This document shows, one piece after another, positions 2,125-49,283 of a stretch of 64,000 nt of DNA. The DNA comes from Microbotryum silenes-acaulis. Lineage: Eukaryota > Basidiomycota > Microbotryomycetes > Microbotryales > Microbotryaceae. Position 1 is the stretch's first letter. Every line of letters starts with the position of its first letter. The notes beneath the pieces are model-generated. The model was given only the letters and a program-made list of their open reading frames with translations, was not told the origin of the DNA and did no database searches. Position numbers and translations under genes: made by a program. The stretch covers positions 399,828 to 463,827 of the forward strand of contig QPFY01000019.1 of the NCBI GenBank assembly GCA_003665825.1. The letters run 5' to 3'.

Positions 2125-5100
2125 TCACCTTGAAGCCGCGCTTCCGTGCAGAGGACCGCCGAACCTCGCACTCTGGACAGTTGGCTCAGCCTGAGCGGGT
2201 CGTTGACTACCGCTCATATGGGCACCGACGATGGGGGGGCGAGGGAGGGAGAGCGGTCGGATCCCTGGAACACCCCTCGCTTTCGAACGGGGATCGACGG
2301 CACCCATGCTGGAGCGAGAATCGGTCGCTGACACGCTCGATGATGAGGTTGGGCGTGGGCTCAGCGCGGACAGCGCCGACACGTGAAGGAAGGGCGAGGC
2401 ATTCCTCTGCATCACCATGGGGATGCGGACGAGATCCTTGGCGGGCTTGTAAGCACTGGCGTGCGCCGACGACCGCGGCGTGGACGCCAAGGTGAGGGAG
2501 TGGGACAAAGAAAGTTGAAGTAGGGGACTCGGATATGCTGATGGCTGAGATACGTGCGTCGTGGGAGGGTGAGGGGAAACCGTCGCCCGAAGAGCGGGAT
2601 GAAGAGGTGCAGAGGCAAAGGGTGTATGGGTCTGCGACTGAGCGTTTGGCTGGTAGTCTGCCCATGGTTGTGGCGCAAGATGGGTGACGGGTGAGGTAGA
2701 ACGAGACCTCGGCGGGATCGCAGGATGAGCGGCGTCATTGACAGAAGGTTGCGGGAGTGTGCGATTGGCTGGCCCAAGTGGTGGCACTGTTGGTTCGTTG
2801 GGCAAGACCTTTGCCGCCACCTCGCCGGCTCGCTTCAAGCGAGGCAGTGCCGCTGGAGGAGCCAAAATGGTCGAGAATGCAGGAGGCTTAGAAGTCGATC
2901 CCAGATCAAATGGGTCCGGGACCGATGCGAAATGTGTTGGCTTTTCGTGAAGACGTGGCGGAATGAATAGTTGCCGTCGTGCGTTCGCTTGAGCTGCAAC
3001 CGCTCGACACGACTTGGCACGACCGTTGGCGTAATCCGAGCCGCTGTCCTCGGCAACTTCGCTATCCTCCATTTCGAACTCGGAATCGGTCTCGACAACG
3101 GCGCTGCCGCGTTTCTTCGACTTCTCCGCTTTTGCTGGTGGCCTGGTTTGGCTGGTTTCCCATGCTCTGATCATCTCGGGAGAGGGCGTAGGCCTAGCGA
3201 CGGCAAAAAACCTTCCGTTCATCCCGGCATCGATCTCAAGTGCTCGAGTAATTCCTCGTCTGCCTTCATCGATCCCATCCAGACGCCAGGGTGTCGTGTA
3301 ACCTTTCCCTTCTTTAAGCTCCCGGCCCACAATGGAACCTCGATCGAGCTCGGCGAAATCCTCCTCGTTGTCACTGCCGTAGTCTATCTCGAAGGAAAGA
3401 AGCTGCCTGTCAAGTTCAGGATGCCCTCGTCTGGTATTGAAGACGAAGTCAAAGTGATGGTTGGTGTCATCCTGGACGTCACTGTCCGTTCCGTCGTCGT
3501 TGTCGTCGTCAGCGCTTGACGAGGTAGACGCCGCCGCCGATGCTGCAAGCGGGGTCACGGAAAACGGAGCGGGAACATCACACGGTCGAAGAGCCTGCTG
3601 TGCGACACGCTGTGTCCTCCTCAAACCAAATGATTCGGCACTCATTAAGTCGGCAGAAGCGAACATCGAAGGGGTCGGCAGCCGCTCCTGTGGGACCGAC
3701 GACAGCGCCCGGGCCTTGCCCTTGCCTTTGTTGTTCGGATCATACGGTCGGACAGCGTATCCAAGCAAGTGGGCCGGCATTGTGAAGTACTCGAGCAGCG
3801 GATTGAATCGCGTGTCGGGCGGTGCGGGTGGCGCGATGTTGCGCAACTCGATGCCGGGAGGTCCGCCAAGTGGTCGCCAAGTGGGTCGGCCATCAATGAC
3901 AGGCGCGGCTCGTGTGACAGGTGCTACGGATGCGACGGGTGCAGCAACAGCTGTAGGTGTGGCGACAACGACGTGCGCAAAGGACCGGGCAGGCACAACA
4001 GATATAGCGGGAGCGGCCGGTGCAAGGGGAACGGCAGGCGCAACAGGAGCGATTGGTGCAGCTGGCGCAATGGACGTGAGGGGGGCGACGGGAGCAACGG
4101 GAGCAACGGGGGGGACGAGGGCGACGGGGCCAGCGGAGGCAATAGATATGATGAGCTCCACAGGTGCAACAGGTGCCAGAGGTGGCACAGGCTCGGGAGC
4201 CAAAGCCATCTCCATTTTGCGGACAATAGGCTTCGTGTCGACGACGATTGAGCCCATTCGATGATCCGTAGGCGTCGAGACCGGTGCCATCGATGTGCTA
4301 GATAACGGCGTGCTCGAAATCGACGCGCTCGACGTCGATCCACTTTGTTCCATCGCGACGCCCAGGTTCGAGCTGTCGGCAACGCCGTCGAGATTGGGCT
4401 GGATTACTGGTGAGATCACCGGGGACCGAGGGACCCTCACTTGAGGTTGATAGTCTGCCTTGCGCTTCTTGCGAGGGAGTTGCATCACTGGGACAACAAG
4501 CTCGAAGGTTGAAGAGCGTGTCGCAGACCGAGGAGGCCGGGCAGCGGTCGAGGGTTTAGGGGCCGCAGCTGGACGTGCCGCTGGTGCTGGCGCGGAAGGT
4601 GCTGCCTCGCGTTTGGGAGCAGATGTCTCAGGAGATTGGGAGGTGGGCTTGGCCTGGGGATTGCGAGCGGGTACGACACGGGAGTTGGGGGCGGATGCCA
4701 AACTCGAGGCCGGGGCCCGAGAAGGGGTGGGAGGTGGATGGAGCCTCGAAGCGGCACTCGCAGTTTGACTGATCCGCTCGTTCGCCCGAGAGGTTGAAGC
4801 GGTCGGGCCATCCCGGGCAGCTGTTGCAGAGCGATGAAACCATAAGGTTAGCTCAGGGCAGCCACCTACAAATGCCGAATATGCCCACCTCGTTGCACTA
4901 TCGGGCTACTACCCGTCAAAGTATCTCGGTCTCGGGTCAGTCCGGCTCCGGCTCTGGCAGATGGCGTCGACACCTTCTGGGGTTTGGCCAACTTCCCCTC
5001 CGCTTCCAAAGCCGACTTGAGATGTAGAGCTCGCTCCACAAGTTGGGGACGCTGTGCAGTCGCCGGCTTGCGTCGTACTGCATTTTTACTGCGGCGTGCA

Positions 5101-6791
5101 GATGCGGAAGTCGTACACGCTGCTTGTACCTCTGTCATCATCTCGGACCCATCGTTCCGGGGTAGCGTTTCGACCTTGTTGCGCTTGTAGGGGACTGCAG
5201 TTGGAGAACACTTGTGCGCTTTGATCGACTTGATGGGTCTCTCATCTTCGTTGGAAGAAGAAGAGGAGGAGGAGGGAGAAGAAGACGTGCTGTCGCTTTC
5301 CTCGTTCGAACTCTCAATGATGCGAGGGCGCTTTCTCGTCACCTTCTTGAGCGGTGGGGGCGAAAGCGCGGCCGGCGCATTCGACGTCGAAGAGCTCGAT
5401 GACGAAGTACTGGAGCTTGATCGGCCACTGCTGGACTCGGAGGAGGACGGACTTGCTTTCACGATAGGCGGTGGTGCCTTCGACAAAGCGGACGAGGCCG
5501 AGTTCGAAAGCGATTCCGAGTCCTCCAAGGAGTCTTCCAACGGCGAGGCGCTCGATGAAGGTGAAGGGGCCCGCGGTCTCTTCGTCTGGATCTGCTCCTT
5601 CTTGGTGGTTGAAGGCGGTGCGATGACCCGAGCTCGCACTTTGGGCGACATCGAGGCTCTCGTGGAGGAGTCCGAGGACGACGACTCGGAATTCGACGAT
5701 TCAGATCGAGCGATCAACCGTTTCTTCTTCGGAGGCTGCCGTGCTCGAGGAGACGACGATCCCGAACCTGACTCCGATTCCGAGTCTGATGTTGAGCCGG
5801 ATAATGACTCCGAGGATGACTCCGTGGACGACTCCGTGGACGACTCCGTGGATGACTCCGAGGATGACTCCGAGGAAGATCCATCTGTAGAGGACGATTC
5901 CATGCTAGAGTCGTCGTCGCCTCGGACGGTGCTGACGATGGTCACCTTCTTTGTCTTGTTGGATCGAGCTTTAAGGATTCGTGGTGGAGGTTTAACCTTG
6001 GCCTTGGTCTTGATGTTGATGCGTGCAAGGCGAAGTCGGGCTGAGCCTGCGCGGGAAGCAGTAACGGCGGAACCGGAGAGCTGGAAACGTCGAGACTTGG
6101 CTTTGGCCTCATGGAGGAGCAGCTCATCCTCGGACGAGGATTCTTCGTCGGACGAAGATGACGACGATGAGGTTTCGGTGGGTGTAGTCTTATCGTCTTG
6201 GAGCCGTAGCATCGAACTTGGCTGTGCTTTGACCGGTTGGGGCTTCAAAGCTGGCTTGGACGTTGAAGCCGTGGGCTGAGCTGTAGCCGGAGCTCGAGTC
6301 TGCGACCGAAAAGAGTGCGATTGGGACGGCTCTTGTCGCTTGTGTTTGGATGGCACGAGCTCGAGCGAGAAGGATGTTGACTTGAACGTCGACGGTTTGA
6401 ATACCTGGGGTGGGTCATGTGCGATGAAGAGGGCGGAAAGGAGCGAGGCAATGCGAGGCCACGAATAGAAGTATCAATACACGCGAATGCGATGGAGGTC
6501 AGTTCAGGCATGGCGGCGGGGCGCGGGGGGCCTCTTGCTCTGAAGCAGGATGGAGGTGCTCTTCACCAGTAGGCTCTGAATGACCAGATGTACCTTTGGG
6601 AACGGTCCAGACGCAATGCTGCGACTGGTTTTACCGCCGACGGACGACACGGCGTGATGAGGACGCCCACTCGCGCTCGGTCCTGCCACCGGCGCCGCTC
6701 GTGCTGCTGAAGGCGCTGAAGACGGCGAGAGCATGCGACCCTTGCCCTGGGAAGTTGAGGAAGATCCATTTGCGGGAGGCGGTCGAGGCAT
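2125..6791 (-). CDS. Large Ser-rich, low-complexity, probably nuclear protein of unknown function (1469 aa)
   Basis: I do not recognise this protein. Three exons join in phase: 6791-6594, 6404-4889 and 4820-2125; introns of 189 and 68 bases, GT-AG. The ATG at 6791 is chosen because the frame from there runs through all three exons; the upstream frame is open for a while, so a farther start is possible. Residues about 100-400 hold long Ser/Glu runs, including SSTESSTESSTESS, alternating with basic patches such as PPKKKRL and KKRKAD that look like nuclear localisation signals. The third exon has a Pro/Ala-Val repeat region, then one non-repetitive block at about residues 1030-1125 (GHPELDRQLLSFEIDYGSDN onward, ending near ARPTPSPEMIRAWE) that could be a small domain. 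A chromatin or transcription role is only a guess from composition. It is divergent from the NRPS gene. Confidence 0.72.
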
Positions 6792-7482: not shown

Positions 7483-10400
7483 ATGGCCGCTTCGGTTCCC
7501 GATTTTCCTCGACTGCCACCCCGTTATGCATACGATGCAGCGAGAATCGAACGGCTCTCGGCTCCGTGGAGGACCAGACGGGCAGCGAACGCCTTTGCAG
7601 CCGAGCAGCACGACTCGGCCGAGTACGGATCAAGTCGGGCAGATGAAGAACCACAGGATGGGAGCCTCTTGAAAGTAGCCGTAGCTATCGTGCTCTCGCT
7701 TCATGCTGGCGACGAGGGCTTCATCTTTGCTGTGCAAGCTGGTGCTGCTGCCAGTCCAGGCGACTCGGGCACGTTCACAACAACCTCGGTTGTCCGCGGC
7801 ATTGTGGATCGAAGGAATGGCAACATTGGCGATCTCTTGCGACAGACACAACATTCGGATAATACTGAGAGCTCCGGTCTCTCGAATGGCCCCCGCGTAA
7901 TGCTCAAGGAAGGAGATGCGCAAGGGTCACGTGGTGCGCCATATCCGCTAATGCTCAGCGTGATCACGGCCTCGCCAGACGTCGAGCTTGAGATCGCCTA
8001 CGATACTTCGCTGGTCCCCGAGTTGGAAGCAAGATGGATCCTCGAGCACGTTCTCGACCTTCACGACCAACTGCTCAAACTTGACGGTTCGAGCCTTGAG
8101 GTCACGCCCCTATCGAGTTTGAGAATGCTGTCTCCGTCGGATCGACAAGTGCTCGTCCAGTATGCAACTTCGGCACCCACCCTCTCGTACGAACACTATC
8201 CCGAAGCAATCACGACTCTGCATGGATTCTTTTTGCACACCGCCGATGCTCACCCCGATGCGCTGGCGCTGCAATTCGACGACCTCGTCCTCTCCTACTC
8301 GCAACTACTTCACCTCGCCGAATACCTCGCCGTCAAGGCGATCATCCCCAATTTCGGGTCGAGGTCCAACCTCGTGATCCCGATCTGCTTGGACAAGTCA
8401 CCCGAAATGATTATCTCGATGCTCGCGGTCTTGCTCTCGGGAGCCGCCTACCTCAACCTCGAACCGGCTTGGCCGGACCAACGCAAGCAGACCATCTTGA
8501 ACGAGCTGAAAGATGTCGGAGCTTTGGCAGACGTCTTCCTTGTCAAGGGCAACGACTGTGAAAATTCCAGATGGTCCGGTTGGGATCAGGCGAAGGAGAA
8601 GACTGTCGTCGATCCTGCGGAAATCGTTAAAGAGCTTCTCGGAAATCTTGGAGAAGTGAAGGACAGTTATCCGATCGAAGAGACGACTTGGCCCCCGGTC
8701 AAGGCAGAGGATTTGGCCTACGTCATTTACACGAGTGGCACAACCGGTTTGCCAAAGGGAATAGCCGTCGAGCATCGCAACGTCTCTGCTTTTCTGAGGT
8801 GAGCCAAGCAAGCCCCTGTCATGGCGGACCTTCCAACAGCGAGTTAAAACTCTGACTCGATTCTCTCGCGATACGCAGAAACTATCGAGGAGTCTTCGGT
8901 CGTGCAAAAGGCGAGCGAGTGCTGCAATTCCCGAGCTATTCGTTCGACGTCTCGGTCATGAACATCTGGGACACATTTGCCGTAAGTAATCACTGTCGTG
9001 AAACCGCCTCAGCTGAGGCCAGGTCAGATTGGCTGATCGTGCGTCCAAATTTGATCCCCCAATAGCACGGCTCGACGCTGTGCATGACCACCCCATCCAC
9101 ACTCATGTCCGATCTGGCCGGTACAATCCTGCGACTGAACTGCACGCTCGTCGATCTTACGCCGACCATCTCCTCGCTCCTCTTCGAGCACCTCGAGTCC
9201 CAACCGCTAGAAGGCGAATCCGTGCTTGAGGCTTGGCAAAGGGCTGGGTTTAAAATCAAGCAACTCAACACGGGCGGAGAGAAGGTTGAAGCTTGGATAA
9301 GGGATGCTTGGATGGATCGAGGCGTGAGGGTCGTGATTGATTACGGACCAACGTAAGTCGCTAGGGGCGAAGCTGGTCGAGCCAATCTGGCTACTGACAT
9401 TTCTTCACTCCTCAGTGAGACGACGGTGGGGGTCATCGCGAACCAATCTAAAGAACGATCGCCACCTTCAGTCCCTATCGGAAGGCCCGTCGGTGCTACA
9501 AGGATCCATGTGCTCTCACCCGATGCACTCGAAACCCTCCCACTTGGCTGCATTGGCGAGATCTGCATCGGAGGAGCACAGGTCACGCGCGGATATATCC
9601 GCTCAAAACTCAACGAAGGAGTTTTTGTCGATGTGGAGGGGCTGGGGAGGATATACCGAACGGGGGATCTGGGCCGATTTCTGGGTGACGGCAAGGGGAG
9701 CATCGAATGTCTTGGCCGAAAGGATGGTCAAGTCAAGGTCAACGGGTTGCGCATCGAGACGGGCGAGATCGAGCAACACCTCACGTCTAAAGTACACCGT
9801 GGGATTCGGAGAGGGGTTGTAGACAAACTCGAGACTGATGATGTTGCCCCGTCGCTTGTCGCGTTCTTGGATCTGTCGACCGACGAGTTTCCGACGGACG
9901 CCGATCGATCGAATGAGGCGGAGCTGGCTGTTCTCCCGTGCTCAACTTCGAACGAATTTGCCAGGGTCGTTGAGGAGGCAAAGAAGTATCTCGGAGGAGT
10001 CGTTCCGTCGTACATGGTGCCAAGGTATTGGCTACCTGTAAATCGAGTCCCAACTCAAGGAATGGGCAAGACCGATCGTAAGTCGCTTCGTCTCTTGGCG
10101 GAACGACACGATTGGAGGACGGCACGCAAAGCGATAAACGACGAAGGCTCGCGCAAGAAAACGGAGGACGAATGGCACCGAACGATGCGCCATGCTTGGA
10201 CAACGGTGCTCAAAATGGATGAAGCCGACATCGGAGATGAGGACGCGTTCACAAGGCTCGGAGGTGACTCGATCGGATTTCTCAAAGTGATCGGCAAGCT
10301 GCGGCAACAGGGGTTCACCATCTCGTTCCGCGAGTTGGTGGACTGCGCGACTCTCACGCAATGCGCAAACGCACTCGAACGTGCTTCGACATTGAACTCC

Positions 10401-12390
10401 GACGCTAGGCCTTCCCCTCGGCAGTATACCGAGTTTTCACTCTTACCTGCGTCGGTGGAACGAGATGCTGTCCTTGACGAGATCAGTGCCGAGTTGGGAA
10501 TCTTGCATGCAGACGTCGAAGATGTGCTTCCGACGGCGCCATCCCAAGATGCGCTCCTCGCAGCCTCGATCGACTCGACGCACTACTACGCCCAAGCAAT
10601 CTATTCGCTCGCTGACGACATCGAGACTGACACCATTTCCTTGGCATTGGGCAATCTGGTTCGTAGGAATGTGGTGCTCAGGACATGTTTCGGTGTACTC
10701 GAAATCACGGGGACGACGATGCAAATCGTTCTCGCGGCAGGGAGCGAGCAGGTCCGCCAGTGCGTCAAAGTGCGGAGGATCGAGGCCGACGACAGCGAGA
10801 TGGATGCTCAAATAGATGTGAGTGATGTCCTTGACGTTGGTTTGAAAACACTACGGCCTACTAAAGACGGAATCTCCGCTGTACAGGAGTGGCTTGCCAT
10901 AGATCGGGCTGCGCACGTCTTTGAATGGGGCCGGTTACTACTCAGCTTTGCGGTCTTTACAAGTCCGAGCTCGGGGAAGAAGAAGCTCGCTTGGAGTATG
11001 CACCATGCCATGAGGTAAGGCATGGTCACCTATCAAAATGTGATTTCTTCGTGATCGCTCAGTCTTTCTCCCTCTTCGTTTCAACAGCGACGGCTGGACT
11101 CTGGAGCTCCTATCGACCGACCTGCGGTGCCTCGTCCACTCGCTCGAACTCGAATCTCGCCCGTCATTCTCGTCCATCGTCAATTGGTGGTCCTCGACCC
11201 CTGCAGATGTTTCCTCGATTGAAAGTTTCTGGAAGACCTACATGGCTGGCGCCCAACCTCTCAACTGGCCTTCACAAGCCCCTTTGAAAGGCGAACAACT
11301 CTCTACGAGCTCGGCCGAGGTATTACATTGGTCCGGCGATCTGAAGGATTTGGCGAAACGAACGGGAATCACACCCGCGATCGCGTCAAGGGTCGCTATA
11401 GCTTTGGCGCTGGGAAGATTCGCAACACGCGACGAGGTCGTCCTTGGAATTGTGAGGTCGGGTAGGGACATTGAGGTTCTTCAGGCGGAGGAGGTCATCG
11501 GACCTTGCGTCTCTGTCCTTCCTTCAAGAACGAAACTGGATCCTCAGATGTCCTTATTGGACTTCGCGGAGAGGGAGACGCAAGATGATCGAAAAGCGAG
11601 AGCGAATCAACAGATTCGCTTGTCGGACTTAACTAAGGTCTGTGAACTATCCGCCCGTAAGGACCTTTTCGATATCCTGGTCACGTACCAATCCTTGGCC
11701 GAACGTGATGACGAACCGAAACATATCAAGAAATTGAGTTGGCCGATTCGACAACCGCCTGAGAAGATTCGTATGCCGACGGCTTATACGCTCTCGATGG
11801 AAGTTACGCCTCAATTGGGCGAGGCGGAGTCGTTCGAATTGGCGTGCTTTTATGATGCGAGGCTCATCGAGAGTGAGACTGTGAAAGGGGTTTTGAAGGG
11901 TGTTGCGAGAATTTTGGATTACTTTGTCGCTGCGCCGTGCACCAAAATAGGGGACGTCAAGTTGGAAGGTGGGGAGGTGCCTACCAGCAAGCGGACGAGA
12001 GAGGTTGAGGAGTTACGGGGAGAAGAAGAGGAAGAAGAAGAGGACTTGGGCGATCTGACAGAGACCAAGCAGAGGATCACTAAAGCCTGGTCGACGGTAC
12101 TGAATATGGATCTTGACGAGATTGGGGACTCGAATTCGTTCGGGTCGCTGGGAGGTGATTCGGTGCGTCCTTGCAAGAAGTCGTTGTCTCGAACAAGCTC
12201 CGTCATTCGACTTGGCTGATGCACGGTGCCATGATTTTTGCAGATCGCGATGATGCGCCTTTCGGTCAGATTGACTAAAGAAGATGTAGCGATCCCTGTT
12301 CAGGCGTTGACCAAGTTGGCAACGGTCAAGGCGCAAGCGAGGTGGTTTGTTAGGAACAAGCAGGAGAAGAAACAGGGGCGAGCGATGTGA
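7483..12390 (+). CDS. Nonribosomal peptide synthetase, (truncated C)-A-T-C-T, siderophore-synthetase-like (1485 aa)
   Basis: Seven exons: 7483-8798, 8879-8981, 9066-9352, 9416-10817, 10887-11014, 11088-12162, 12244-12390; all phases match. The start ATG (7483) is the first after an in-frame stop at 7426. Domains: residues ~70-215 resemble the C-terminal half of a condensation domain without its catalytic motif; A domain ~245-795 with YTSGTTGLPKG (A3), YGPTETT (A5), YRTGDL (A7) and GMGKTDRKS (A10 lysine); T domain with LGGDSI at ~849; complete C domain ~905-1365 with HHAMSDGW (His-His-x3-Asp-Gly) formed across a splice; a second T domain with LGGDSIA at ~1433; then stop. There is no thioesterase, reductase or terminal C domain. 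One A, two T and one C domain suit a dimeric product such as a diketopiperazine; a hydroxamate dipeptide siderophore is my inference. The 69-base intron at 10818-10886 is in frame without stops and easily mistaken for coding. Confidence 0.9.
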
Positions 12391-22881: not shown

Positions 22882-25800
22882 CTACATAATTCCCATCCCT
22901 ATGGCCGCCCTATGCTTCTCTAGTGCCGGTCTCGGCAACGCCTTCGTAAACATGTCGGCGAGCATCTCGGCGGTTGGAAGATAGTTAACGACGATGTCAC
23001 CTTCTCGTACCCGTTCTCGAACGAAATGCTCGGTCAGGCGTAGGTGCTTAGTTCGATCGTGGAACACCGGATTCTTTGTGAGAGCTATCGCGCCTTGATT
23101 GTCGCCTTTCAGCTCGATCGGGCCACAAATCGTGACCCCCAATTCCGCGAGCAAATTCCGCAAGAACTGACACTCTCGAGACGCATGAGTAAGGCCGATG
23201 TATTCCGCTTCCGTTGATGACGTCGCCACTCGGCTCTGGATCCGAGAACTCCAAGAAATTGGCCCGTCAGCCAGCTTGAAGACATGCCCCATCGTAGATC
23301 GGGACGTGTTGATGCAGGAACCCCACGTATCCAACCAACGAATCACGTTTCGTCTTGTAGACAATGCCGAGTTCGAGAGTTCCCTTGATGTAGCGTAGAA
23401 TCTTCACAACTGCCGCCCAATGGTCACTGCCCGCCTTGTTCGTGAATCTTGCCAAATACGACACCGGGTATGCAAGATCGGGCCGAGTTGCAACGACGGC
23501 GTACATCAATGATCCAATGGCCGATCTGTACTGTGTCTGTAACGAGGGATCCGGAGTGTCGCAGGGTTTGAGCTGAAGACCCGGTTGCATTGGTAATACA
23601 CTTTTGTTAGCATCCGCCATGCCGAACCTTGCAAGTACATCAAGCAAATACTGTCGTTGCGACAACGCAATCCCATCCGCTTGACGAATGAGCTGGACGC
23701 CAAGGATGTACTCTGCATTGCCGAGACGTTTGACTCCGTACAATCGATCCAATTCGTCGAGCACGCGATCAATTTCGGATAAGTCGGGACCGACAAACAG
23801 CAAGTCGTCGACGTAAACCGCGATGTAATAATCGTCTTTGCCAAGTGTCCGACGATAGACACACTCTTCGCTCCGAAGACGATTGTAACCAAGCTTGACG
23901 AGGGTCTTATGGATCGTCTCGTTCCATACCCGGCCGGCCTGCTTGAGACCGTAAATCGAGCGTTGCAACTTGAGACAGACATCGTCGGGAAGTCGGACTC
24001 CCTCCGGTACGCGCATGTACAATTCCTCTTCAAGTTCGCCATGCAAATAGGCTTTGTCAATGTCCGCTTGGATGATATGGTAACCCCGGGCGACCGCCAA
24101 CGCGATGAGAGTACGAATTGAGACAAACTTCGCTGTCGGTGCGAACGTCTCTTTGAAGTCAATTCCCGGCCGTTGCGTGAAGCCTCGTGCAACAAGTCGA
24201 GCTTTGTACGAAGTCGGCCGACCATCCTTGTCCCGTTTCGTTCGGAAAACGAATTTGGACCCGAGAACCTTGGCGCCGGCGGGAAGCTCGTCTCGTTTCA
24301 TAATCGTAAGGACTGAGCAATCGTCACGCAATGACTCGAACTCATCGATTGTACCTTGCGCCCATTCGTGAGACTTGTGGTGTGCCATGGCTGCCTTCCA
24401 AGTCGTGGGATCACTAGTCGGCAAAACAAACGGACCGTCTTCCTCGTCGGAATCGGCGACGGCTACGAAGGCCTCCGGTTCGAAACGCTCAGGTGCCCTA
24501 CGATCCCGCTTTCCGACCGGTGCTGCCCAAGCAGGTCCAGGGGCGTCAAAACGCAACTCCTTTGGTACATCTTCCACAATTGGTGCGTGTTGCTCGGCGG
24601 GGTCAACGTCGTCAACCGGGTTTTCCTCCCGGGCTTCTACCTCGACCTCCGGGGCCTGGTTCGCAGCGATCGGCTGTTGCGCAGCTTCATGTCGATCCGT
24701 CGCAACTGGTCGAGGTACGACTACTTCGATCGCCTCAGTCCTCGGTGCTGGCGCGCCTTCACGGGCCGGGAACTTGTCCTCGAAGAACGTCACGCTTCGC
24801 GATAACGTTAACCGCCCCCTCACCGGGTCCCATAGTCGGTAGGCTTTGGATTCTAGGTCGTATCCGAGGAAGATCATCGGAAGGCCCCGTGGCTGGAGTT
24901 TCTTACGTTGTTCGGTATTCGCCGTGTGCCAAGCTCGACATCCGAAGACCCGCAAGTGATGAACGTGCGCAGGTTTCCCGGTCCATTCCCGAAATGGCAC
25001 CTTGCCACCAAGAGCAGAATGTGGGGAACGATTCTTCACATACACGTATGTAGCCACGGCTTCGGCCCAAAACACCGTGGGCAGACCGGATTCATACAGC
25101 ATCGTTCGAGCTGCTTCCGAAATCGAGCGGTTGGCCCTTTCGGCGACACCGTTTTGCTCGGGCGTGCTGGGGATCGTGAGTTGTCGCGACAAACCCGTGT
25201 CGTCCAACCATCGCTTGAACTCCGTCGAAAGAAACTCGCCACCGCGGTCCGAACGGACAACTTTCAAAGTGTGCCCTGACGACAGCTCGACCCGTAGTTT
25301 CCACGTTTTGAACCTTTCAAAGGAGTCCGACTTCCGCGGCATCGTCAACACCCACATGTACCGCGTACAATCGTCAACGATAACTAGCGCGTAGCAATGA
25401 TTTGCAAGTGACAGCTCGCCGTCGAAGGACAAGAGATCGATGTGGACGAGATCGAGGGGTTTTTCGGCTAGCGATTCGGAGTTTGGGAACGGCTTGTGCG
25501 TAGCTTTGCCGGCCAGACATGATTCGCATTTCAAGTCACTGCGAGACTTCATGTTCAAACCTATCACAGCGTCAGACTTGGACAGCTGGTGAAGGGAACG
25601 GCAGTGTAGATGAGCGAAACGTCCGTGCCAGATGTGGAGAGGCACTGCCGTCAGAGCTGTGGCTGACGCACATTCATGGGGTGAACTCCGAGCTTGAACC
25701 AACTTGAGGTCCAGACGGTACAACCCCGAATTGAGCTTCTGTCCCGTGAGTAGGATGTCGTCATTTCCGGCCACCGTGAATCGCCCGTTTTGAATGGTGA

Positions 25801-26941
25801 TCTTGCGACTATCACGATCGGCTCGATGCCCGGCGAAGAGATTGGCGGGGGCGCTAGGGACGAAGATGCTGTTGACCAAGTTGTACCTCTTGCCGTGCTT
25901 GTCTTCGACGCAGGCCGTGCCTACTCCCATAATGGTCTTTCCGTCACCATTGATGCCCTTTAACGAAGACGGAGCTGTCGCCTTCAGGTCGGCGAACGCG
26001 GCAGGATTATTGATGACGTGATGAGTCGCTGCCGTGTCGTAGAGGATCATTTCTCGAGAGTGTCCTTTTGGTAATTGCGTGAAAAACGCGCCAACGGAAT
26101 CGGTCCCCAGAATGTCTTCAACCGAAGGGAGCGCCAAATTTGCCATCGGTTCCTCGCCTTTGGTCGTCTTGCGTCGTGGAAACTTTATCTTCTTCGGCTT
26201 GGAACAGTTTTTGAAGTGGGTGTCTTCACCGCAGTTCCAGCAGGGGCCGGGTGGCTTCGGTTGGGCACCAGTCGTGGCCAACAACGCCGTCGCAGCGTTC
26301 CCAGTATCTTGACTCAAGTTTGCTGGAGCTCGACCTGCTGCGATCACTGTGTCGACAGTTGGTATCGCATCGACGTCTTTGGAGTCGAACTGATCCAGAT
26401 ACGACGGTCGTCGAGCGCCCACAATCGCAATGAGGTGGCATGCAACCACTTGGTCGAAGGTCAACTTGTGAGCCCGTAGGTCAGTTGTGAGGCGAGTGAT
26501 GGATCCGGCCCAAGGAAGATAATCGTCTTCCTGTGCTGGTGGCGGTCCGACCGAGAATAACTTTCCAATTTGCGTGATAACGCCGCGAAGGGAAGACCGA
26601 CCCAGGTGCTTTCGAAGGTATTCCACCGTCTGCTCCGGCCTCAGGTCGTAGCAGCTGACCAGGAGATGCGCCACACTTTCTGAACAGGTTTGATGCATTG
26701 CCCTGTGCACCGCATCATGAGCTCGATCGAGTTCATCGTCGTCCTTGCATTTGGCGGATGGGTACTGCTTGGGAAAGGAGAGCTGCCACTGACGCCTGTC
26801 GACGGTGAAGCGAACGTGATCGAGCCATACGTCGATGTTGTTGTTCTTCAAAATCGCAAATGCCGGGAAACGCGAAGTTTGCGAGTGTGTTGGAGGGTCT
26901 GCGTCGACGGACTTGTCGATGGTTGACTGTTCGCCAGTCAT
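22882..26941 (-). pseudogene. Copia gag-pol polyprotein, frameshifted in RNase H
   Basis: The frame opens at ATG 26941 and stays open to about 23315. Visible parts with rough residue numbers: gag zinc knuckle CWNCGEDTHFKNC at ~235 (one residue short between His and the last Cys); protease DTAATHH at ~300; integrase HHCC finger ~430-480, then acidic residues in VHIDLLSF, SDRGGEF and EQNGVAERANR; reverse transcriptase ~890-1080 with YVDDLLF at ~1040; then the start of RNase H. After LVGY the reading frame changes and the rest of RNase H (INTSRSTMGHVFK, SSTEAEYI, KGDNQGA, DRTKHL) continues in another frame to 22882. The block that normally carries the first catalytic Asp of RNase H is missing at the break. 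Protein ends before the polypurine tract. Confidence 0.9.
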
Positions 26942-26995
26942 GGTGGAGCGTTCGGGTGAACCGTTGCGACGTGGCAGCAGCTGTGCGAAGTCGTT

Positions 26996-27007
26996 GGGCT
27001 TATAACC
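26996..27007 (-). other. Primer-binding site resembling half-tRNA(iMet)
   Basis: Directly after the 5' LTR the minus strand reads GGTTATAAGCCC. This differs at one base from GGTTATGAGCCC, the complement of the conserved initiator-tRNA anticodon arm, as used by copia-type elements that prime from a half tRNA. Confidence 0.65.
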
Positions 27008-27142
27008 TCTAGAATCTCGGCGTCTGATTCGAGGTGGTTCAATACGTTAGAACGCTCGAATCAGAAGGAAGCTAAGAGAAAGCCCGCGCGCGCTCGCGCT
27101 CATGTAGCCTACAGAGTGTACTCCTCACGTGTCAACTCGACA
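27008..27142 (-). repeat. 5' LTR of the copia element (135 bp)
   Basis: Same sequence as 22728-22862. It is followed on the plus strand by CTTTA (27143-27147), the second copy of the target-site duplication. Confidence 0.93.
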
Positions 27143-27838: not shown

Positions 27839-30800
27839 ATGGTTTTTGGCTCGGTCTCGGTAGTTGGTTCTGTGTTGAGCCTCGCCCAGCTAGCGGCGAC
27901 GCTCTCGGTCTCAAAGAACAACTTCGGCAACTCGAGCACGGAGCAACCGGGGCCGATCGCGGCACCGAAGTACAACATCGCTTTCCGCGGCGTTACGGAC
28001 AAGAATGGCTTCATCGTCCCTGAAAAGTTGATGGTAAGTCACCAAGTATTTTCATGCCTCTAGGCTTCACCGTCCGCGACTTTTTTCGTGGGCCTTGAAT
28101 ACTCGGAAACATCATCGTCGTGTTAGTAGCTAGCTGTCTCGTCGGCGGTTGATCGATCTCGCACGCACGCGTCTCGACGTGACTTGGCTGCCGGCGTCGG
28201 CTTAGCTTCGGGAAGCTTCCGGTGGTCTCGACTTCAAGTTTGCTCTCCGCTGGTCTCAGTTCAGTGAACACACTTGATTGTGAGAGCTGACCCCGCCGCG
28301 CACTCGCATCACCATCTCGACGATGATGATCAACAACAGGAGGATTTGGATCGGCTCAACAAGAGGTTCAACCACACGATCGTCGACATTGAGGCACTCC
28401 ACCCTCTCGCCGCTTCGACGGCAGCCCCTATTCCTGATGGCCCGCACCGCTTTGTCAGGCGTGCACCGGCCGTGACGACGACGTCGGCCACACCTCTGCC
28501 AACGTCCAAGGGCAAGAAGTGGTGAGTGGGGTGCCGTGCATGGTGGCTCAATTGGATGCGAAAGTTCTTGCTGACAGACTGACCACTTTCTTCACCTCCG
28601 CGCTTGCGTTTGGCTTTCGGCCGTAGCTCGCCCGGCTTCTTGAACCAGACTGCGTGCGTCAAAGTCTGCCCCGACAAGTTGCTCGCCGATACAAAAGCAG
28701 CAAACTGCGTCCCATGCCCTGCCCAGGCGACGTGCAAGCAAGGCCTCGTCACCACCTGCCAGTTCGTCGTCTACTCCACTGCTCTCATCCCTCTTTCAGC
28801 TACCGAACATGACGTACTGACTCGGCATAGAACCTACTGCTGTGTTGTGAACCAACAGGAGTGGGTGGTTGATCAACCCGACTAAGACCGCTTGCATCGC
28901 GTGCCCGATCCACGCAGTCTGTCGGAACGGCGTCGTCTCGAGCTGCGAGTGAGTTCTACGAGTGGCGTACTGCGGAGTTTTGGTACCTTTCATCCCCGAC
29001 TCTCTCTCTGACACCTGTGCATATTTCCGTGTAGCACCGGCCTCCTGATCAATGCCCAACAAACGGCATGTGGCGCTTGCCCTCGCCGAACGATCTGCAC
29101 AGGCGGCAAGATCACGTCTTGCCAGTTGAGTTCATCTGTGCATGTGCTCCGTTGCCGCCTTGTGCCCACGAGCTGACACTCGCTGCATCTTCTTACATTC
29201 TTGATATCGTACAGAGCAGGACTCTTGCTTGATGCTGCCAAAGCCTGTGTCGCCTGCCCCGCTAACGGTGTCTGCTCCAACGGTGCTCTCGCGTCGTGCA
29301 GGTCAGTTTTTGCTCGTGTGTTCTGCCACGGTCCACGACCGTTTCAACTGACGGCACTCTGCAACCATCTCCTTCAACTCCCACCTCTGCTCAGCGCGGG
29401 CTTTGTCTTGAATGGTGCCAAGACGGGTTGCAAAGCCGTCCCGGTCGTCACAACCAAATCTACGACTTCGTCAACCACATCGTCAGCCACTCGCACTTCG
29501 ACCGCGTCGTCAGCCACCACCTCGGCCGCTGTACCCACGTCAAAGTCGACCACATCTTCCACAATCTCTGCCACAGTTCGGACTTCGTCGTCCTCAGCTA
29601 CTAAGTTGACATCGAGTTCGACAACACCGTCCTCGACCACCTCACCCGCGGTGACGACTCCCTCTACGACGCCGAGCACCACTTCGGCCTCTTCAACGAC
29701 CAAGAGCTCGTCTACCCCCTCGACTACTTCCTCAACGACCAGCTCGTCGATCTCGCCCTCGATCACGACATCATCTCGTACGACGTCATCCAGCTCCACC
29801 GCGGCCACCACGTCCAGCAGCTCCAGTTCGACCCCATCGGCTTCTCCTAGCGCCGGCTCGTGCCCCAAGAACACCTGGTCGTACTACGTCGACTGGTACC
29901 TTAAAGGCGGCTCTTACCATGGTCCCGGCTACGTGAACGCCAAATGTGTCGAGATCGCAGCGGGCAGTCAAGGGTCTTCTGATCCAGTCAACGCCGTCTC
30001 CTACACCGATGGCTACTGTGTTGTGCGACAAAGCAGCTCCCTCGGTCCGTCCGACTTGGGATCAGGTAACCCCGGCTGGGAGTCGTTCGTGGTAGGGTGC
30101 TGCCCGGACAACGGCCTAAAGGGAGCGCCCACGAAGGCGACCAAGGTTTGCCGCAACATCCTTGTGACAAGCTCATCCATCTCTGAGGCGGACGGGTCGA
30201 CCTTCCTTGGGCGTGCCTACAAGGCGCCTAGCACTCCCCCCGTCGCCGGAACTGCCTCTATTCCTCTTCAGTACCCGGATCACACCACGAGCTTGACCAC
30301 TGGCGGCTTCATGTTCCTTTCGAAGGCGTCGGCCGGCACCCCACCTCAGGAGTTCACAATTCTGTGGGATACCGGATCGCCACTCTTCTGGGTCGACGGG
30401 ACGACCTGCGTTGATGGCACGTGCAATGGTAAGCGGAAATACGACAACACGTCTTCGTCGACGTACGAGGACATCGGTGGAACTGCCAGTAGGATCACGT
30501 ACGGCGATGGGACCTGGGCTTCGGTGACTCCTTTCCGCGACACGGTCACCGTCGGTGGCGTGAGTGCCACTGATTTTTACATGGCTCAAGCAGATGTGAG
30601 TTTCGAGTAGGGCCGATTGCCCTTTTCATTCAAGTCATAATTGCGCGAGTTCAGCCTTACTCATGCCCTGGCCTGTGGCGGTCACGTGCAGACCCAATCG
30701 CCCGGATGGAGCCGAGGCGCAACCGACGGACTGTTTGGAATGTCTTTCAATGGTCCGAACTCGGGGCACAAGTATGAGGCAACGGTGATCCAACAGGTCC

Positions 30801-43885: not shown

Positions 43886-43888
43886 AAC

Positions 43889-45486
43889 CCGAGACCGATC
43901 GACTTAACTATATCCGCCTTCGTCAAGAAAACCTGCGCCTCACCACGGCGCAGGGCATCACCGACGCCGTTGCCAACGGTTTGACCTCGGATCAAATCGG
44001 ACGTTCGGTGATATTGGGGTCGACGTTCAAGAATAGCCCGCGGGAGGTCACGCAACGTTACCAAGATGCGATGGCGTGCGTCATCAAGTATGGGAAGCCT
44101 TCGCTATTCATCACGGTGGCGTGCAACCCCGAATGGCCGGAAATCAAGGCTGCACTGGGGCCGAACGACAAAGCATGCAACCGTCCGGATCTCATTGCAC
44201 GAGTGTTTGAAGCCAAGCTGAACCAACTCTGCGACGACGTTTTTGGCAACAAGCAACGTGCAGGCTGTTTTGGCGTGGTTCTGACGCATACACATGTGAT
44301 TGAGTATCAGAATCGGGGCCTGCCACATGCCCATATCCTCATCACCCTCGCGCCGGACGATCATCCTTTGTCGACGGAAGCGATCGACAAGATGATCTCG
44401 GCCGAGATACCCGATCCTTCGCGCTATCCTGATCTCCACGAGACCGTCACAAAGCACATGCTGCATGGCAAGTGTGGCGGAAACTCGACTCAGCCCTGCA
44501 TGGAGAAGGACAAGTACGGTAACCCGAGGTGCAAGCGCCATTTTCCTCGCGAACAGAACCCCCACACCCGCATGCACCCTGAGGGCTACCCGTTGTATCG
44601 CCGACGCTTTCGCCACGCCGTTGTCAAGGGGGTTGTCATCTACAACGATGGTGACTGCGTGTCGTACTCGCCTTATCTCTGCGCCAAGTACAACGCGCAT
44701 ATCAATGTGGAGGCTGTGACAACGATCGGCGCGATCAAGTACCTCTTCAAGTATGTGTACAAAGGTCCGGATCGAGCTGTGGCGCGTGTTGAGCATGCAG
44801 CGAACTGTGAAGGGGCCCGCGAGGAGGAACCGGTTCGAGATGAGATCAACGAGTTCGTCGAAGGTCGCTACATCAGTGCTCCAGAAGCGGTCCACCGCCT
44901 ATTCGGATTCTCGACCGGTAGAGTGTGGCCGCCCGTCAATCGACTACCGGTCCATCTGGAGCATCAACAATCTGTGCAGATCAATCCCGACGAACCGCTG
45001 CCCCTCGACACTCCGCCCACTCGCTCCAAATTAACCGGCTTCTTCGACCTGTGCGCCGCAGCTCCCGACGGCGAGCTCACTGCCACGTTGCTCTACACGA
45101 ATGTTTCCCGCTACTACTCCTGGAATAAGGAGAAGCTGCGCTGGAAGCGCCGAGTTCGTGATCGCAATGTCATCGGACGAATCTACACTGTTTCACTGCG
45201 TAGTGGGGAGCGCTTTTACCTCAGACTGCTTCTCGAGGTTGTCATGGGTCCCACGTCGTTTGCGGATCTGCTCAAGTATGAAGACGCCGTGTATCCTTCG
45301 TACCGCGCCGCTTGCGCCGCTCGCGGACTTCTCGCCGATGATGGCGAGCATCACATCTGTCTTGGGGAAGCTGCGCAGATTGAGACCGGTGACCAACTAC
45401 GCCGATTGTTCGTGTTCATGCTCATCCATGCGACGGTTGCCAACCCGCCAGCTTTGCTGGATCGTCGGGGGTGGAATGGCGCCTGA
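43889..45486 (+). pseudogene. Helitron Rep (HUH) domain, truncated
   Basis: The frame opens without an ATG at ETDRLNYIRLRQENLRL, showing that the N-terminus is missing. It runs through SPREVTQRYQDAMA and GKPSLFITVACNPEWPEI to the HUH motif in EYQNRGLPHAHILI and the Tyr-containing motif AIKYLFKYVYKGPDRA. These are the metal-binding and catalytic parts of Helitron-like Rep proteins. After FMLIHATVANPPALLDR the frame runs into a stop at 45486, at the deletion junction. Not functional as read. Confidence 0.9.
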
Positions 45487-46045
45487 ACTGATTTCGCCAG
45501 AGTATCTACATTCAATCAACCCATCCAACTTCCCCGCGCATCACTTGCGTCTCAAGGAAGGGATCCCCGTCGTTCTTCTTCGCAATTTGGACCCAGATGC
45601 GGGCCTCTGCAACGGTACCCGCCTGATCGTGTCGCACGCAAGATCGCGAGTCATTCAAGCCATCATCTTGACCGGAGATCGAGCGGGCACCACGGTCTTC
45701 ATCCCTCGCGTGCGACTTGAGACAAATGCGACTAGCAGTCGCCAACTTGGTTTCACTATGCGCCGGCTCCAGTTCCCGCTTCGAGTTGCCTTGGCCATGA
45801 CGATCAACAAAGCCCAAGGCCAATCACTCGATCGCGTTGGTGTCGATCTCTCCCTATATCCCGTCTTCACTCATGGGCAGCTGTATGTGGCATTGTCTCG
45901 AGCCATGAGTGTTGATCGAATCAAGGTGCTACTGCCTTCTCGAGACCCGCCGATGATGACGACGACCTACAAGCCGTTGATCGAGCGGCAGCCGCAGCCA
46001 CCGCGACCCCAAACCCAGTATTCCACGCTGTTCTCAGGGCAATGA
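45463..46045 (+). pseudogene. Helitron PIF1-like helicase, C-terminal fragment
   Basis: In another frame than Rep, from about 45470: NPSNFPAHHLRLKEGIPVVL, LCNGTRLIV, then the late helicase motifs ALAMTINKAQGQSLDRVGVD and HGQLYVALSRA, and a stop after LFSGQ. Walker A and B and all motifs before them are absent, so several hundred residues were lost between Rep and this fragment. Confidence 0.9.
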
Positions 46046-46733: not shown

Positions 46734-49283
46734 ATGCCCTCCTACTGTTCGTTCCGCGTGGTCTGGCTGTTCAGTGTTGACCCAACATTGACCCATGGAC
46801 TGGACCCGATGGCAATTGCAGTGCCTAGTCAGGACGCCCGGCGCTCGGACCAGTCCATCTCGGGCGAGGCGTCGTCGGGGCCCAAGATCCGAAGAAGCGC
46901 GCGACTGATGCAGATGCCCAACGCCGCGCCCCCCGCCCAAGCGGAATCGATGCGCGTCAACGCCAGAGATCGCGCGCCACGCCCGTCGGTTGGCACGTCT
47001 GCTCTTGCGCCCCCCGCCCCCGCCGCCACCCAATCGCTGCCGACACACCTGCCCAGTTCGTCGGCTCGCGCCCCATTAACGCCGATACGCGGGCCCATCA
47101 TCCACGACAAGACTCGGCCAGGGCGAGCAGGTCGCTCAAGCGAGGCCGTAGGCCTGTCAGGCATGTCGGGCCTCGTCGATGCTTTACCACGCTCGAGTCC
47201 GATGAAGTCGAGTCCCGTTGTGTCGATGTCGGCCACGGCGGAAGCGAGGGAGCAACAGCTCTTTGCCCACATGGGCAAACCTCGACTCTCGAAGGCGATG
47301 GACAAGTACTTTCTTGCCACGCCTTCGAAGTACGAGGCCAAGGTCCCCCAGCCCACCAGACAATTGGGGACGGAGGCTGCGATGAGAGAGATCGCTAACG
47401 CGATCAAGGATGTGGTGAGTGCCCCGATGCTATCGCTTGGCTTCGACCGCACGAGTATGACTGACCACTGTGTCCCGATCATTGATGGACCCGGGTGTAG
47501 ACTGGTGATCGACGTCTGGTCGGATGCGGCAACTCGGGTAGCCTCATCAAGCTGGCGCCCGATCGCGGGGAGCAGGAGAAGACGCCCGACGCCGTCATTT
47601 TAACGCATGCGGCGGTGGCCGCTGCCCCCGATCTTCCGTTCGTTTGGGCGCAGTCAGAGCACCCAACGTCGATGGAAGGCACGCCCCCGTCGCCTCAACG
47701 CGCATACTCGCAGATTGCAGTGGCGATTGAGGTGAAAGAGAGCGACACGAAGAGCGCAGAAGCGCGTAACCAAGTGCTTAGGCGGCTACACATGATCTGC
47801 ACGACCGCACTCCGCGCCCACGCGATCGGGGTCACCCTTTGCGGGGACGTGCTTCAAGTCTACCTCGTCAACGCGTGTGGGGTGTTCACGACGAGCGCCC
47901 GCAAGTGCGGTCAGGAAGCCGTGCTGCTCCGGCGCGTGCTGTCACACCTCATCGAACTCGACGACAACGGGCTCGGGATGCTGGCCTCGACGAACGAGGT
48001 CGACGATGGTTTCGGCAATTTTGTCGTCTCGGACAAGTTTCTCCCACCCCGCGCCCACGACTTCGAGTCCGAGCTCGGCGATATCTCAGATCTCGAGATC
48101 CAGGAGCTCCTCTTCCGACGTCGAAGCTGCACGGGTCGTGCAACCTCCGCTTTCCGCGTTACCGCAAGACACGCGCCTGTCGACCCCACGTCGATCAGCT
48201 TGCCTACATCTGCCACCGAGTACGCCATGACAGTCGCATGGGTCGAGCAATCCCGCCTCGACGATGCGATTGCCCTACGTCGCAATATGCACGCCGCGTC
48301 TCGTGCCGACACCGAGGGTTTAAGCCTTAGCGCCGGCATCTACCGGGACGACTTCCGCACGCTTCCGACCTTCTTCGGTGATGATGAAAGCTTCGATGAT
48401 ATCGGGCCCCGGGCACTCGAGGTGGTCTTTCACCGACAGTGTTATCGGCCCCTCAACACGGCGACCACGACCAAGGAACTCGCCCAGGCCGTACTTGGAG
48501 GCGTCAAAGGTGAGCACAGGGATCAATTGGGCGGCCTTGCGTTTGCGCTCCCTAGCCGACACGCCCATTCCTATGACAATGCAGGACACCGAAACCTCTA
48601 CAGGCTGGGGTATATTCACCGGGATATTTCGTACGGCAACGTCGTCATCGACCGCGACGGTTTCGGCGTCCTTATCGACTATCACCTCGCCGTCCCGCAT
48701 GATCGGCCTTGCACCGAGCTGCACCACAGAATACGATCCGTGCGTCCTCCCCTCTGTATGTTCCCCCAAATAAAGTTTCTGACCAGCACTAACCTTTGGA
48801 CTATACGACGTCTGACAGGGCACCTGGCCCTACCTCGCCTGCTCGATCCTCGCCCAGCCACAACAGCCGCTCGGTGTCGTCCACGAACGGTGGCACGACA
48901 TCGAGTCGCTGTTCTACGTCGTAATGGAATCTTCGTTCCGCGAGCCGTACAAGGGCAACGAGGAAGTCCTCGTAATGACGCCGAAGGGTGAAACCATCTG
49001 GCGGCGCTGGAACAGCCCAGAAGCGGACCAAGTCTATGTCTTCAAAGTTGTGCTTCGCATGGATCCGGCATACCGACCTGTACTCGAAGGCTGTGCACAT
49101 CGATGGACAAATATCCGGCTACTCATCGACATCTTGAGACGCAATTGCGGCCTCGATAGCCGGTTCCTTGGTCTCGAGGTGGCTGCGGAAGAGGCCAAGC
49201 TGGGGGAGTTGTGGGGTCCATCCAAGGCGATGTCGCACGAGTCCATCATCTCGGACATTGAGCAGCTGCTTCCCTTGCTCTGA
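46734..49283 (+). CDS. Fungal-type protein kinase, FunK1 family (about 769 aa)
   Basis: FunK1 kinases are a fungal expansion of protein-kinase-like proteins with largely unknown substrates. Exons: 46734-47414, 47501-48509, 48585-48739, 48819-49283, all phases matching. The N-terminus is Ala/Pro/Ser-rich; the middle (VTGDRRLVGCGNSG..IAVAIEVK) matches the region before the kinase lobe. Kinase motifs are GYIHRDISYGNVVIDRDGFG (HRD loop), VLIDYHLAV (in place of DFG), GTWPYLACSIL, and HERWHDIESLFYV, the last typical of the family. Start is uncertain: ATG 46734 or 46809, or an upstream exon. The 75-base intron 48510-48584 is in frame and lacks stops. The gene looks intact although it lies among decayed repeats, about 500 bases after a Helitron end. 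Confidence 0.85.

What the first reader, a model, noticed from the sequence alone, without database searches (positions are those of the whole stretch)
7483..12390. Minimal one-A, two-T NRPS that could make a dimeric (diketopiperazine-type) siderophore
Seen: truncated C, A, T, C (HHAMSDGW intact), T, then stop. Known: fungal hydroxamate siderophore synthetases use iterative T/C modules, and rhodotorulic acid is the cyclic dipeptide of N5-acetyl-N5-hydroxyornithine made by red yeasts. Inferred: one A domain charging both T domains and one C domain joining them would be just enough for such a dipeptide, released by cyclisation without a thioesterase. Aligning by eye to GrsA gives the specificity residues D-V-M-D-N-G-D-V-K, which share a D-V-x-D-x-G shape with codes I recall for hydroxyornithine-activating fungal domains.
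Basis: partly seen in the sequence, partly recalled or inferred. Interest (0 to 1): 0.75.

Follow-up and report, generated by a model that had tools for sequence, protein, structure and literature searches.

The report
Likely rhodotorulic acid synthetase gene
A small two-step peptide-assembly enzyme in an anther-smut fungus, shared with red yeasts, is the best candidate for the enzyme that makes rhodotorulic acid, an iron-scavenging molecule known since the 1960s.

Summary
A six-exon gene at exactly 7483-12390 (+) encodes a 1508-aa NRPS: C-terminal lobe of a C domain, A, T, C (HHAMSDGW intact), T, stop. The genome is a Microbotryum (93-94% identical orthologues). The 33 listed homologues, from Microbotryomycetes and Mixia, keep the catalytic motifs; 29 of 33 keep the code DVMDNGDVGK. 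Of 23 published pocket rows, the five nearest by the ten-letter code are all assigned to acyl-hydroxyornithine. The genome also holds a SidA-type ornithine N5-oxygenase and a GNAT of the hydroxyornithine-acyltransferase family; the only other C-domain match lies in a LYS2-like frame. The family's range fits known rhodotorulic acid producers. Best reading: the rhodotorulic acid synthetase, releasing its product by self-cyclisation (release inferred). Against: the A domain matches SidN A3 less well than many bacterial A domains, a published tree left the lone Sporobolomyces roseus NRPS unplaced and 'unknown', and Leucosporidium, a reported producer genus, gave no NRPS hit. Nothing biochemical was tested. 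I found no open paper naming the gene.

The parts
7483..12390 (+). Whole NRPS gene, six exons 7483-8798, 8879-8981, 9066-9352, 9416-11014, 11088-12162, 12244-12390; 1508 aa
   Evidence: Splicing and translation; same start and end in the annotated M. saponariae orthologue P0001
7483..8214 (+). Residues 1-244: orphan C-terminal lobe of a condensation domain, no HHxxxDG
8215..10124 (+). Residues 245-805: adenylation domain, code DVMDNGDVGK (spans introns 8799-8878, 8982-9065, 9353-9415)
   Evidence: PF00501 8e-65; code; coordinates
10185..10373 (+). T1 carrier domain, residues 826-888; phosphopantetheine Ser 854 (10269-10271, motif LGGDSIGF)
   Evidence: PF00550 1.5e-11; coordinates
10566..11964 (+). 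Condensation domain, residues 953-1394 (spans intron 11015-11087)
   Evidence: PF00668 1.9e-34
11001..11097 (+). Catalytic motif HHAMSDGW of the C domain, split by the intron 11015-11087
   Evidence: present in 34 of 34 family sequences
12070..12345 (+). T2 carrier domain, residues 1430-1494; Ser 1460 (12160-12162) is the last codon of exon 5 (spans intron 12163-12243)
   Evidence: PF00550 9.7e-13; GGDS in 34 of 34

Best explanation
This is the rhodotorulic acid synthetase of a Microbotryum species, and its family is the rhodotorulic acid synthetase of Microbotryomycetes and Mixia. SidA hydroxylates L-ornithine at N5 and a GNAT acetylates it (both genes are present; their activities are inferred). 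The single A domain activates N5-acetyl-N5-hydroxyornithine and loads both T1 and T2 (inferred; precedent in SidD and SidC). The C domain joins the two residues into a dipeptide on T2. The free amine then attacks the thioester and the product leaves as the diketopiperazine, so no thioesterase or terminal C domain is needed (inferred). The orphan N-terminal C-lobe is probably a platform for the A domain (inferred).
For: Domain order and intact motifs. Homologues in the red-yeast genera reported to make rhodotorulic acid (genera in a paper title seen). R. kratochvilovae makes rhodotorulic acid (PMC13015310, passages), is tabulated with one NRPS cluster (PMC7823890, passages), and has a family member, P0023. 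Code: the five nearest of 23 published pocket rows are all assigned to AHO. SidA-type gene and PF13523 GNAT in the same genome. The only C-domain matches in the genome are this gene and a LYS2-like frame. One A loading several T domains is shown for SidD and SidC (PMC10192304, passages).
Against: SidN A3, an AHO-type domain, matches the A domain less well (121 bits) than GrsA (166) and others (profile 165 against 248). Bushley and Turgeon 2010 left the S. roseus NRPS ungrouped and 'unknown' (PMC2823734, passages). Bushley 2008 says the ten-letter code failed for fungal domains (PMC2644324, passages); over all 17 pocket positions only three AHO rows lead (9 of 17) and the fourth ties with three non-AHO rows at 7. 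Leucosporidium and Phenoliferia appear with SidA but not with the NRPS. The genes are not clustered: NRPS on C19, SidA and GNAT on C13. No iron-repressor site cluster upstream. PMC7823890 ties the R. mucilaginosa NRPS to cyclo(Leu-Phe) and indoles. No biochemistry was done.
Confidence: 0.8

Rival explanations
1. A hydroxamate siderophore synthetase with another product: a different acyl group, a linear dimer, or iterative use giving a trimer of the basidioferrin kind.
For: Type VI synthetases with one A domain make linear trimers (PMC10192304, passages); the acyl group cannot be read from the sequence; the GNAT's acyl donor is not known.
Against: Only two T domains and one C domain, conserved in the family, and no terminal C; rhodotorulic acid is the siderophore reported for several of the genera that carry it.
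Confidence: 0.1
2. A diketopiperazine synthetase for ordinary amino acids, such as cyclo(Leu-Phe), unrelated to iron.
For: PMC7823890 (passages) links the single Rhodotorula NRPS cluster to cyclo(Leu-Phe) and indole compounds by co-occurrence.
Against: One A domain would have to supply two different residues; the pocket is AHO-like with acidic D278 and D322; the link in that paper is by co-occurrence; rhodotorulic acid would then lack an NRPS in species with a single one.
Confidence: 0.06
3. Rhodotorulic acid is made by an NRPS-independent or tRNA-dependent enzyme, and this NRPS does something else.
For: NRPS-independent synthetases make other dihydroxamates in bacteria, and cyclodipeptide synthases make diketopiperazines (both recalled).
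Against: No IucA/IucC match in the genome, while the control rings in 2 of 14 genomes. A CDPS search also found nothing, but its control rang in no genome, so it excludes nothing.
Confidence: 0.04

Closest known systems
CsNPS2 / Cpf1 (Type VI, basidioferrin and coprinoferrin synthetases)
   Same: One A domain serves several T domains; only the hydroxyornithine part of a ferrichrome synthetase; basidiomycete
   Different: Products are three-unit peptides (PMC10192304, passages), against a predicted dimer here; this protein has one C, two T and an extra C-lobe. Sequences were not compared.
SidC / NPS2 / Sib1 / Sid2 ferrichrome synthetases (SID family)
   Same: AHO-type pocket: D278, G301 and G331 as in Sib1 A3, NPS2 and Sid2 A3; precursor supply by SidA and a GNAT
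   Different: No glycine or serine modules, no terminal C; A domain not close to SidN A3 by sequence; SID membership not shown
SidD / NPS6 (extracellular fusarinine or coprogen-type synthetases)
   Same: A single working A domain loads two T domains (SidD; PMC10192304, passages)
   Different: SidD carries a truncated A domain in module 2 and makes ester-linked products (the latter recalled); here the truncated domain is a C-lobe at the N-terminus
Sr31423 of Sporobolomyces roseus
   Same: Very likely the orthologue: the only NRPS there besides the aminoadipate reductase, and 7 Sporobolomyces proteins fall in the family
   Different: Left ungrouped and of unknown role in Bushley and Turgeon 2010 (PMC2823734, passages); its sequence was not compared here

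Membership tests
Nonribosomal peptide synthetase | A, T and C domains with intact catalytic motifs in one protein | tested here: met
Rhodotorulic acid synthetase | Activates N5-acetyl-N5-hydroxyornithine | not testable with these tools
   Pocket residues fit, but only an assay can show it
Rhodotorulic acid synthetase | Two carrier sites and one peptide-bond-forming C domain for a homodimer | tested here: met
Rhodotorulic acid synthetase | Ornithine N5-oxygenase and hydroxyornithine acyltransferase in the genome | tested here: met
   PF13434 2.8e-60 and best PDB match ornithine N5-monooxygenase; PF13523 3.5e-31. Activities not tested
Rhodotorulic acid synthetase | Present in producers, absent in non-producers | tested here: inconclusive
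   Present in several producer genera; 23 of 31 NRPS species names also in the SidA list; no NRPS hit for Leucosporidium; production in most listed species not known to me
SID family of ferrichrome synthetases | A and C domains group with SidC, NPS2, Sib1 | tested here: inconclusive
   No SID sequence in my tree; SidN A3 a weaker match than many bacterial A domains; published tree left S. roseus NRPS ungrouped
SID family of ferrichrome synthetases | C-terminal T-C repeats ending in a terminal C domain | tested here: not met
   The protein ends 14 residues after the T2 match; no domain follows
SID family of ferrichrome synthetases | Pocket of AHO type in the A domain | tested here: met
   6 of 10 code letters with Sib1 A3, NPS2 A3/A4 and Sid2 A3; 4 of 10 with three other AHO rows and with five non-AHO rows

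The most novel reading that the evidence does not exclude
Microbotryomycetes evolved their own hydroxamate siderophore synthetase: a fungal NRPS lineage outside the ferrichrome (SID) family came to activate acyl-hydroxyornithine and shrank to an assembly line smaller than the Type VI synthetases described as the most truncated, with release left to self-cyclisation and half a condensation domain kept only as a scaffold.
Probability: 0.35. Interest if true: 0.65.

Novelty: new variant of a known kind. Interest (0 to 1): 0.5.

Why it matters
Rhodotorulic acid is a classic siderophore: isolated in 1968, with a synthetase activity reported from Rhodotorula glutinis in 1972 (both seen as titles in a reference list). 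I found no open paper that names its gene. In genomes with a single NRPS one deletion settles the question. A 2026 preprint makes rhodotorulic acid the shared iron carrier between leaf yeasts and Pseudomonas (PMC13015310, passages), so a gene would allow yeast mutants in that system. It would also give a minimal case for how one A domain loads two carriers and how a fungal NRPS releases its product without a release domain.

Tried and rejected
Gene-model error as the cause of the truncated first C: rejected, because the C-domain search shows no further match near the gene and 32 of 33 homologues have an aligned start region; P0032 lacks it in its model. A SidC-type synthetase elsewhere in the genome: none seen (exons are read apart and only 3 candidates were scored, so a very diverged one could be missed). 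A gene cluster with SidA: no, SidA and GNAT lie on C13, the NRPS on C19. An iron-regulated promoter: no ATCWGATAA in the 64 kb window and one TGATAA in about 1.3 kb upstream; uninformative. Getting SidN A3 (3ite) as a tree reference through PDB searches failed: where listed, it was never among the alignments shown, and searches did not list it. The A-domain profile search (4908 significant of 7998 scored, 120 listed) gave fragments of the family itself, then mostly bacterial or unnamed proteins and one Tilletia protein; none of the 120 is named as a siderophore synthetase, which cannot show absence. NCBIfam: the NRPS reached no curated cut-off among the 25 families shown, SidA matched only a histamine N-monooxygenase model far under its cut-off, the GNAT nothing. 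The fold search with exon 1 was dominated by its A part, so I folded the N-terminal piece alone. My note says the code is identical in 30 of 33 homologues; the correct count is 29 of 33. A PP-binding search of the genome found T1 but not T2, which is cut by an intron.

Full report
What is there. The gene at 7483-12390 (+) has six exons and five GT..AG introns and encodes 1508 aa. M. saponariae (93% identity) and M. lychnidis-dioicae (94%) have the same protein, M. intermedium one at 80%, so the 29.85 Mb, 88-contig genome is a Microbotryum (Pucciniomycotina, Microbotryomycetes). Pfam finds one AMP-binding, one Condensation and two PP-binding domains. The order is N-terminal lobe, A, T1, C, T2, stop.

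Family. One search scored 7985 candidates, 3894 were significant and 120 are listed. The first 33 form a family (880 bits or more); then the score falls to 635 (Sorochytrium, 29% over 73%) and to mostly bacterial or unnamed proteins with three ascomycete ones. The 33 come from Microbotryum (3), unnamed Microbotryomycetes (3), Sporobolomyces (7), Rhodotorula (10), Rhodosporidiobolus (7), Meredithblackwellia, Pseudohyphozyma and Mixia (classes checked for the last three and for Sporobolomyces; Mixia is in Mixiomycetes). Counting the window gene, HHAMSDGW is in 34 of 34, T2 GGDS in 34 of 34 and T1 GGDS in 33 of 34. Two models differ in outline: P0029 is longer (1812 aa) and P0032 carries an extra PF03364 domain and lacks the N-terminal lobe.

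Substrate. The code is D V M D N G D V G K, identical in 29 of 33 homologues; P0024, P0032 and P0033 differ at one position and P0023 has a gap. I compared the pocket with the 23 rows of Table 2 in Bushley et al. 2008 (PMC2644324, passages). By the ten code letters the top five rows are Sib1 A3, FgNPS2 A3, ChNPS2 A4 and Sid2 A3 (6 of 10) and Sid2 A2 (5 of 10), all assigned to AHO. The other three AHO rows (SidC A3, Fer3 A3, FgNPS1 A3) have 4 of 10, level with five glycine or serine rows; GrsA has 2. Over all 17 positions the three NPS2/Sib1 AHO rows lead with 9; Sid2 A3 has 7, level with three non-AHO rows. By position, counted in that table: G331 in 7 of 8 AHO rows and 0 of 15 others, G301 in 8 of 8 and 2 of 15, D278 in 4 of 8 and 1 of 15. 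The same paper says that the code failed to predict substrates in fungi and that the assignments come from structural modelling. So this is support, not proof.

Supply of the building block. The genome has a clear SidA-type gene on C13 (PF13434, E 2.8e-60); its main exon matches L-ornithine N5-monooxygenases best in the PDB (7jvk 2.6e-46, 4b63 3e-46), ahead of lysine N6-monooxygenases (MbtG 1.4e-32). A PF13523 GNAT lies about 154 kb away on C13 (3.5e-31). Three weaker PF13434 matches (3.1e-6 to 3.8e-5) were not followed. C-domain matches: two in this gene and one in a C2 frame that also has an AMP-binding domain and is followed by frames with AMP-binding and carrier matches, which I read as LYS2. 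Three phosphopantetheinyl-transferase-type matches exist.

Co-occurrence. SidA homologues: 481 significant of 7998 scored, 120 listed. Of 31 species names with the NRPS, 23 also appear in the SidA list; 8 do not, and 9 of 32 SidA species names that I took from Microbotryomycetes and Mixia have no NRPS entry. Clustering at 90% hides species on both sides. Leucosporidium, reported as a producer genus, is among the nine. SidA also occurs in Puccinia and many Agaricomycetes, so SidA alone does not predict this NRPS.

The single-NRPS argument. PMC7823890 (passages) reports one NRPS cluster in each Rhodotorula genome it tabulates, R. kratochvilovae and R. toruloides among them; it ties the R. mucilaginosa cluster to cyclo(Leu-Phe) and indoles by co-occurrence. 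PMC13015310 (passages and outline) finds rhodotorulic acid in R. kratochvilovae supernatant; the words NRPS, non-ribosomal and synthetase do not occur in it. Members from R. kratochvilovae (P0023), R. toruloides (P0017-P0019), R. graminis (P0020) and R. glutinis (P0027) are. If the lone NRPS makes the known siderophore, the assignment follows. PMC8781417 (passages) lists rhodotorulic acid for Ustilago inflorescentiae; that this smut belongs in or near Microbotryum and that anther smuts were reported to make rhodotorulic acid is my recollection, and the name is not in the taxonomy copy.

Lineage. The A domain scores 166 bits with GrsA and 121 with SidN A3; as a profile 248 and 165, with 275 for a single-A bacterial chain. 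The C domain is nearest to bacterial elongation-type C domains in the PDB (PvdL, 65 bits) and weaker against the fungal terminal domain TqaA-CT (31 bits). A FastTree of 67 A-domain tips, picked by hand from fetched proteins (10 of 33 homologues), puts the family (support 1.0) with a Tilletia protein and a metagenome protein of unknown source (0.933) inside a clade with Sorochytrium and three ascomycete NRPSs (0.999). No SID sequence is in it, so it cannot say whether the family is SID. Bushley and Turgeon 2010 (PMC2823734, passages) state that S. roseus has one NRPS besides the aminoadipate reductase, of unknown role, and that Sr31423 did not group with any subfamily.

Mechanism. Shown: the domains, their motifs, their conservation, the companion genes. 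Known from others: one A domain loads both T domains in SidD, and SidC A3 loads T4 and T5 (PMC10192304, passages). Inferred: AHO as substrate, loading of both T domains, dipeptide formation on T2, cyclisation off T2. Release of a dipeptidyl thioester as a diketopiperazine is established chemistry (recalled) and fits the lack of any domain after T2.

Verdict. Most likely the rhodotorulic acid synthetase (0.8). What is new is the gene assignment and the minimal layout, not the type of chemistry. The search for earlier naming covers only the open library; subscription papers were not searched.

Noticed in passing
window 23270-27046 (-): Long open frame (1259 aa) of a copia-type retroelement polyprotein: GAG-pre-integrase, integrase and reverse transcriptase domains.
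   Followed up: no
window 43888-46042 (+): Helitron-like N-terminal domain followed by a frame with a Pif1-type helicase domain; next to it, at 47501-48988 (+), a fungal-type protein kinase.
   Followed up: no
window 29177-30607 (+): Start of an aspartyl protease gene (PF00026, 8.9e-19) behind about 380 residues without a match.
   Followed up: no
window 4866-6473 (-): Serine- and glutamate-rich low-complexity frame (535 aa) upstream of the NRPS on the other strand.
   Followed up: no
L013:2243-2902 (+): Beside the GNAT gene lies a frame with a weak FGE-sulfatase match (2.2e-4, under Pfam's cut-off); it looked like an ergothioneine EgtB-type gene (inference).
   Followed up: partly
own genome C3:166029-166325 (+): Two GATA zinc fingers in one 692-aa frame, a possible Urbs1/SreA-type iron regulator (function inferred).
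   Followed up: no
P0265, Tilletia walkeri: Partial NRPS of a bunt fungus whose A domain is among the nearest outside the family, with a C-lobe-like stretch before it by eye.
   Followed up: partly
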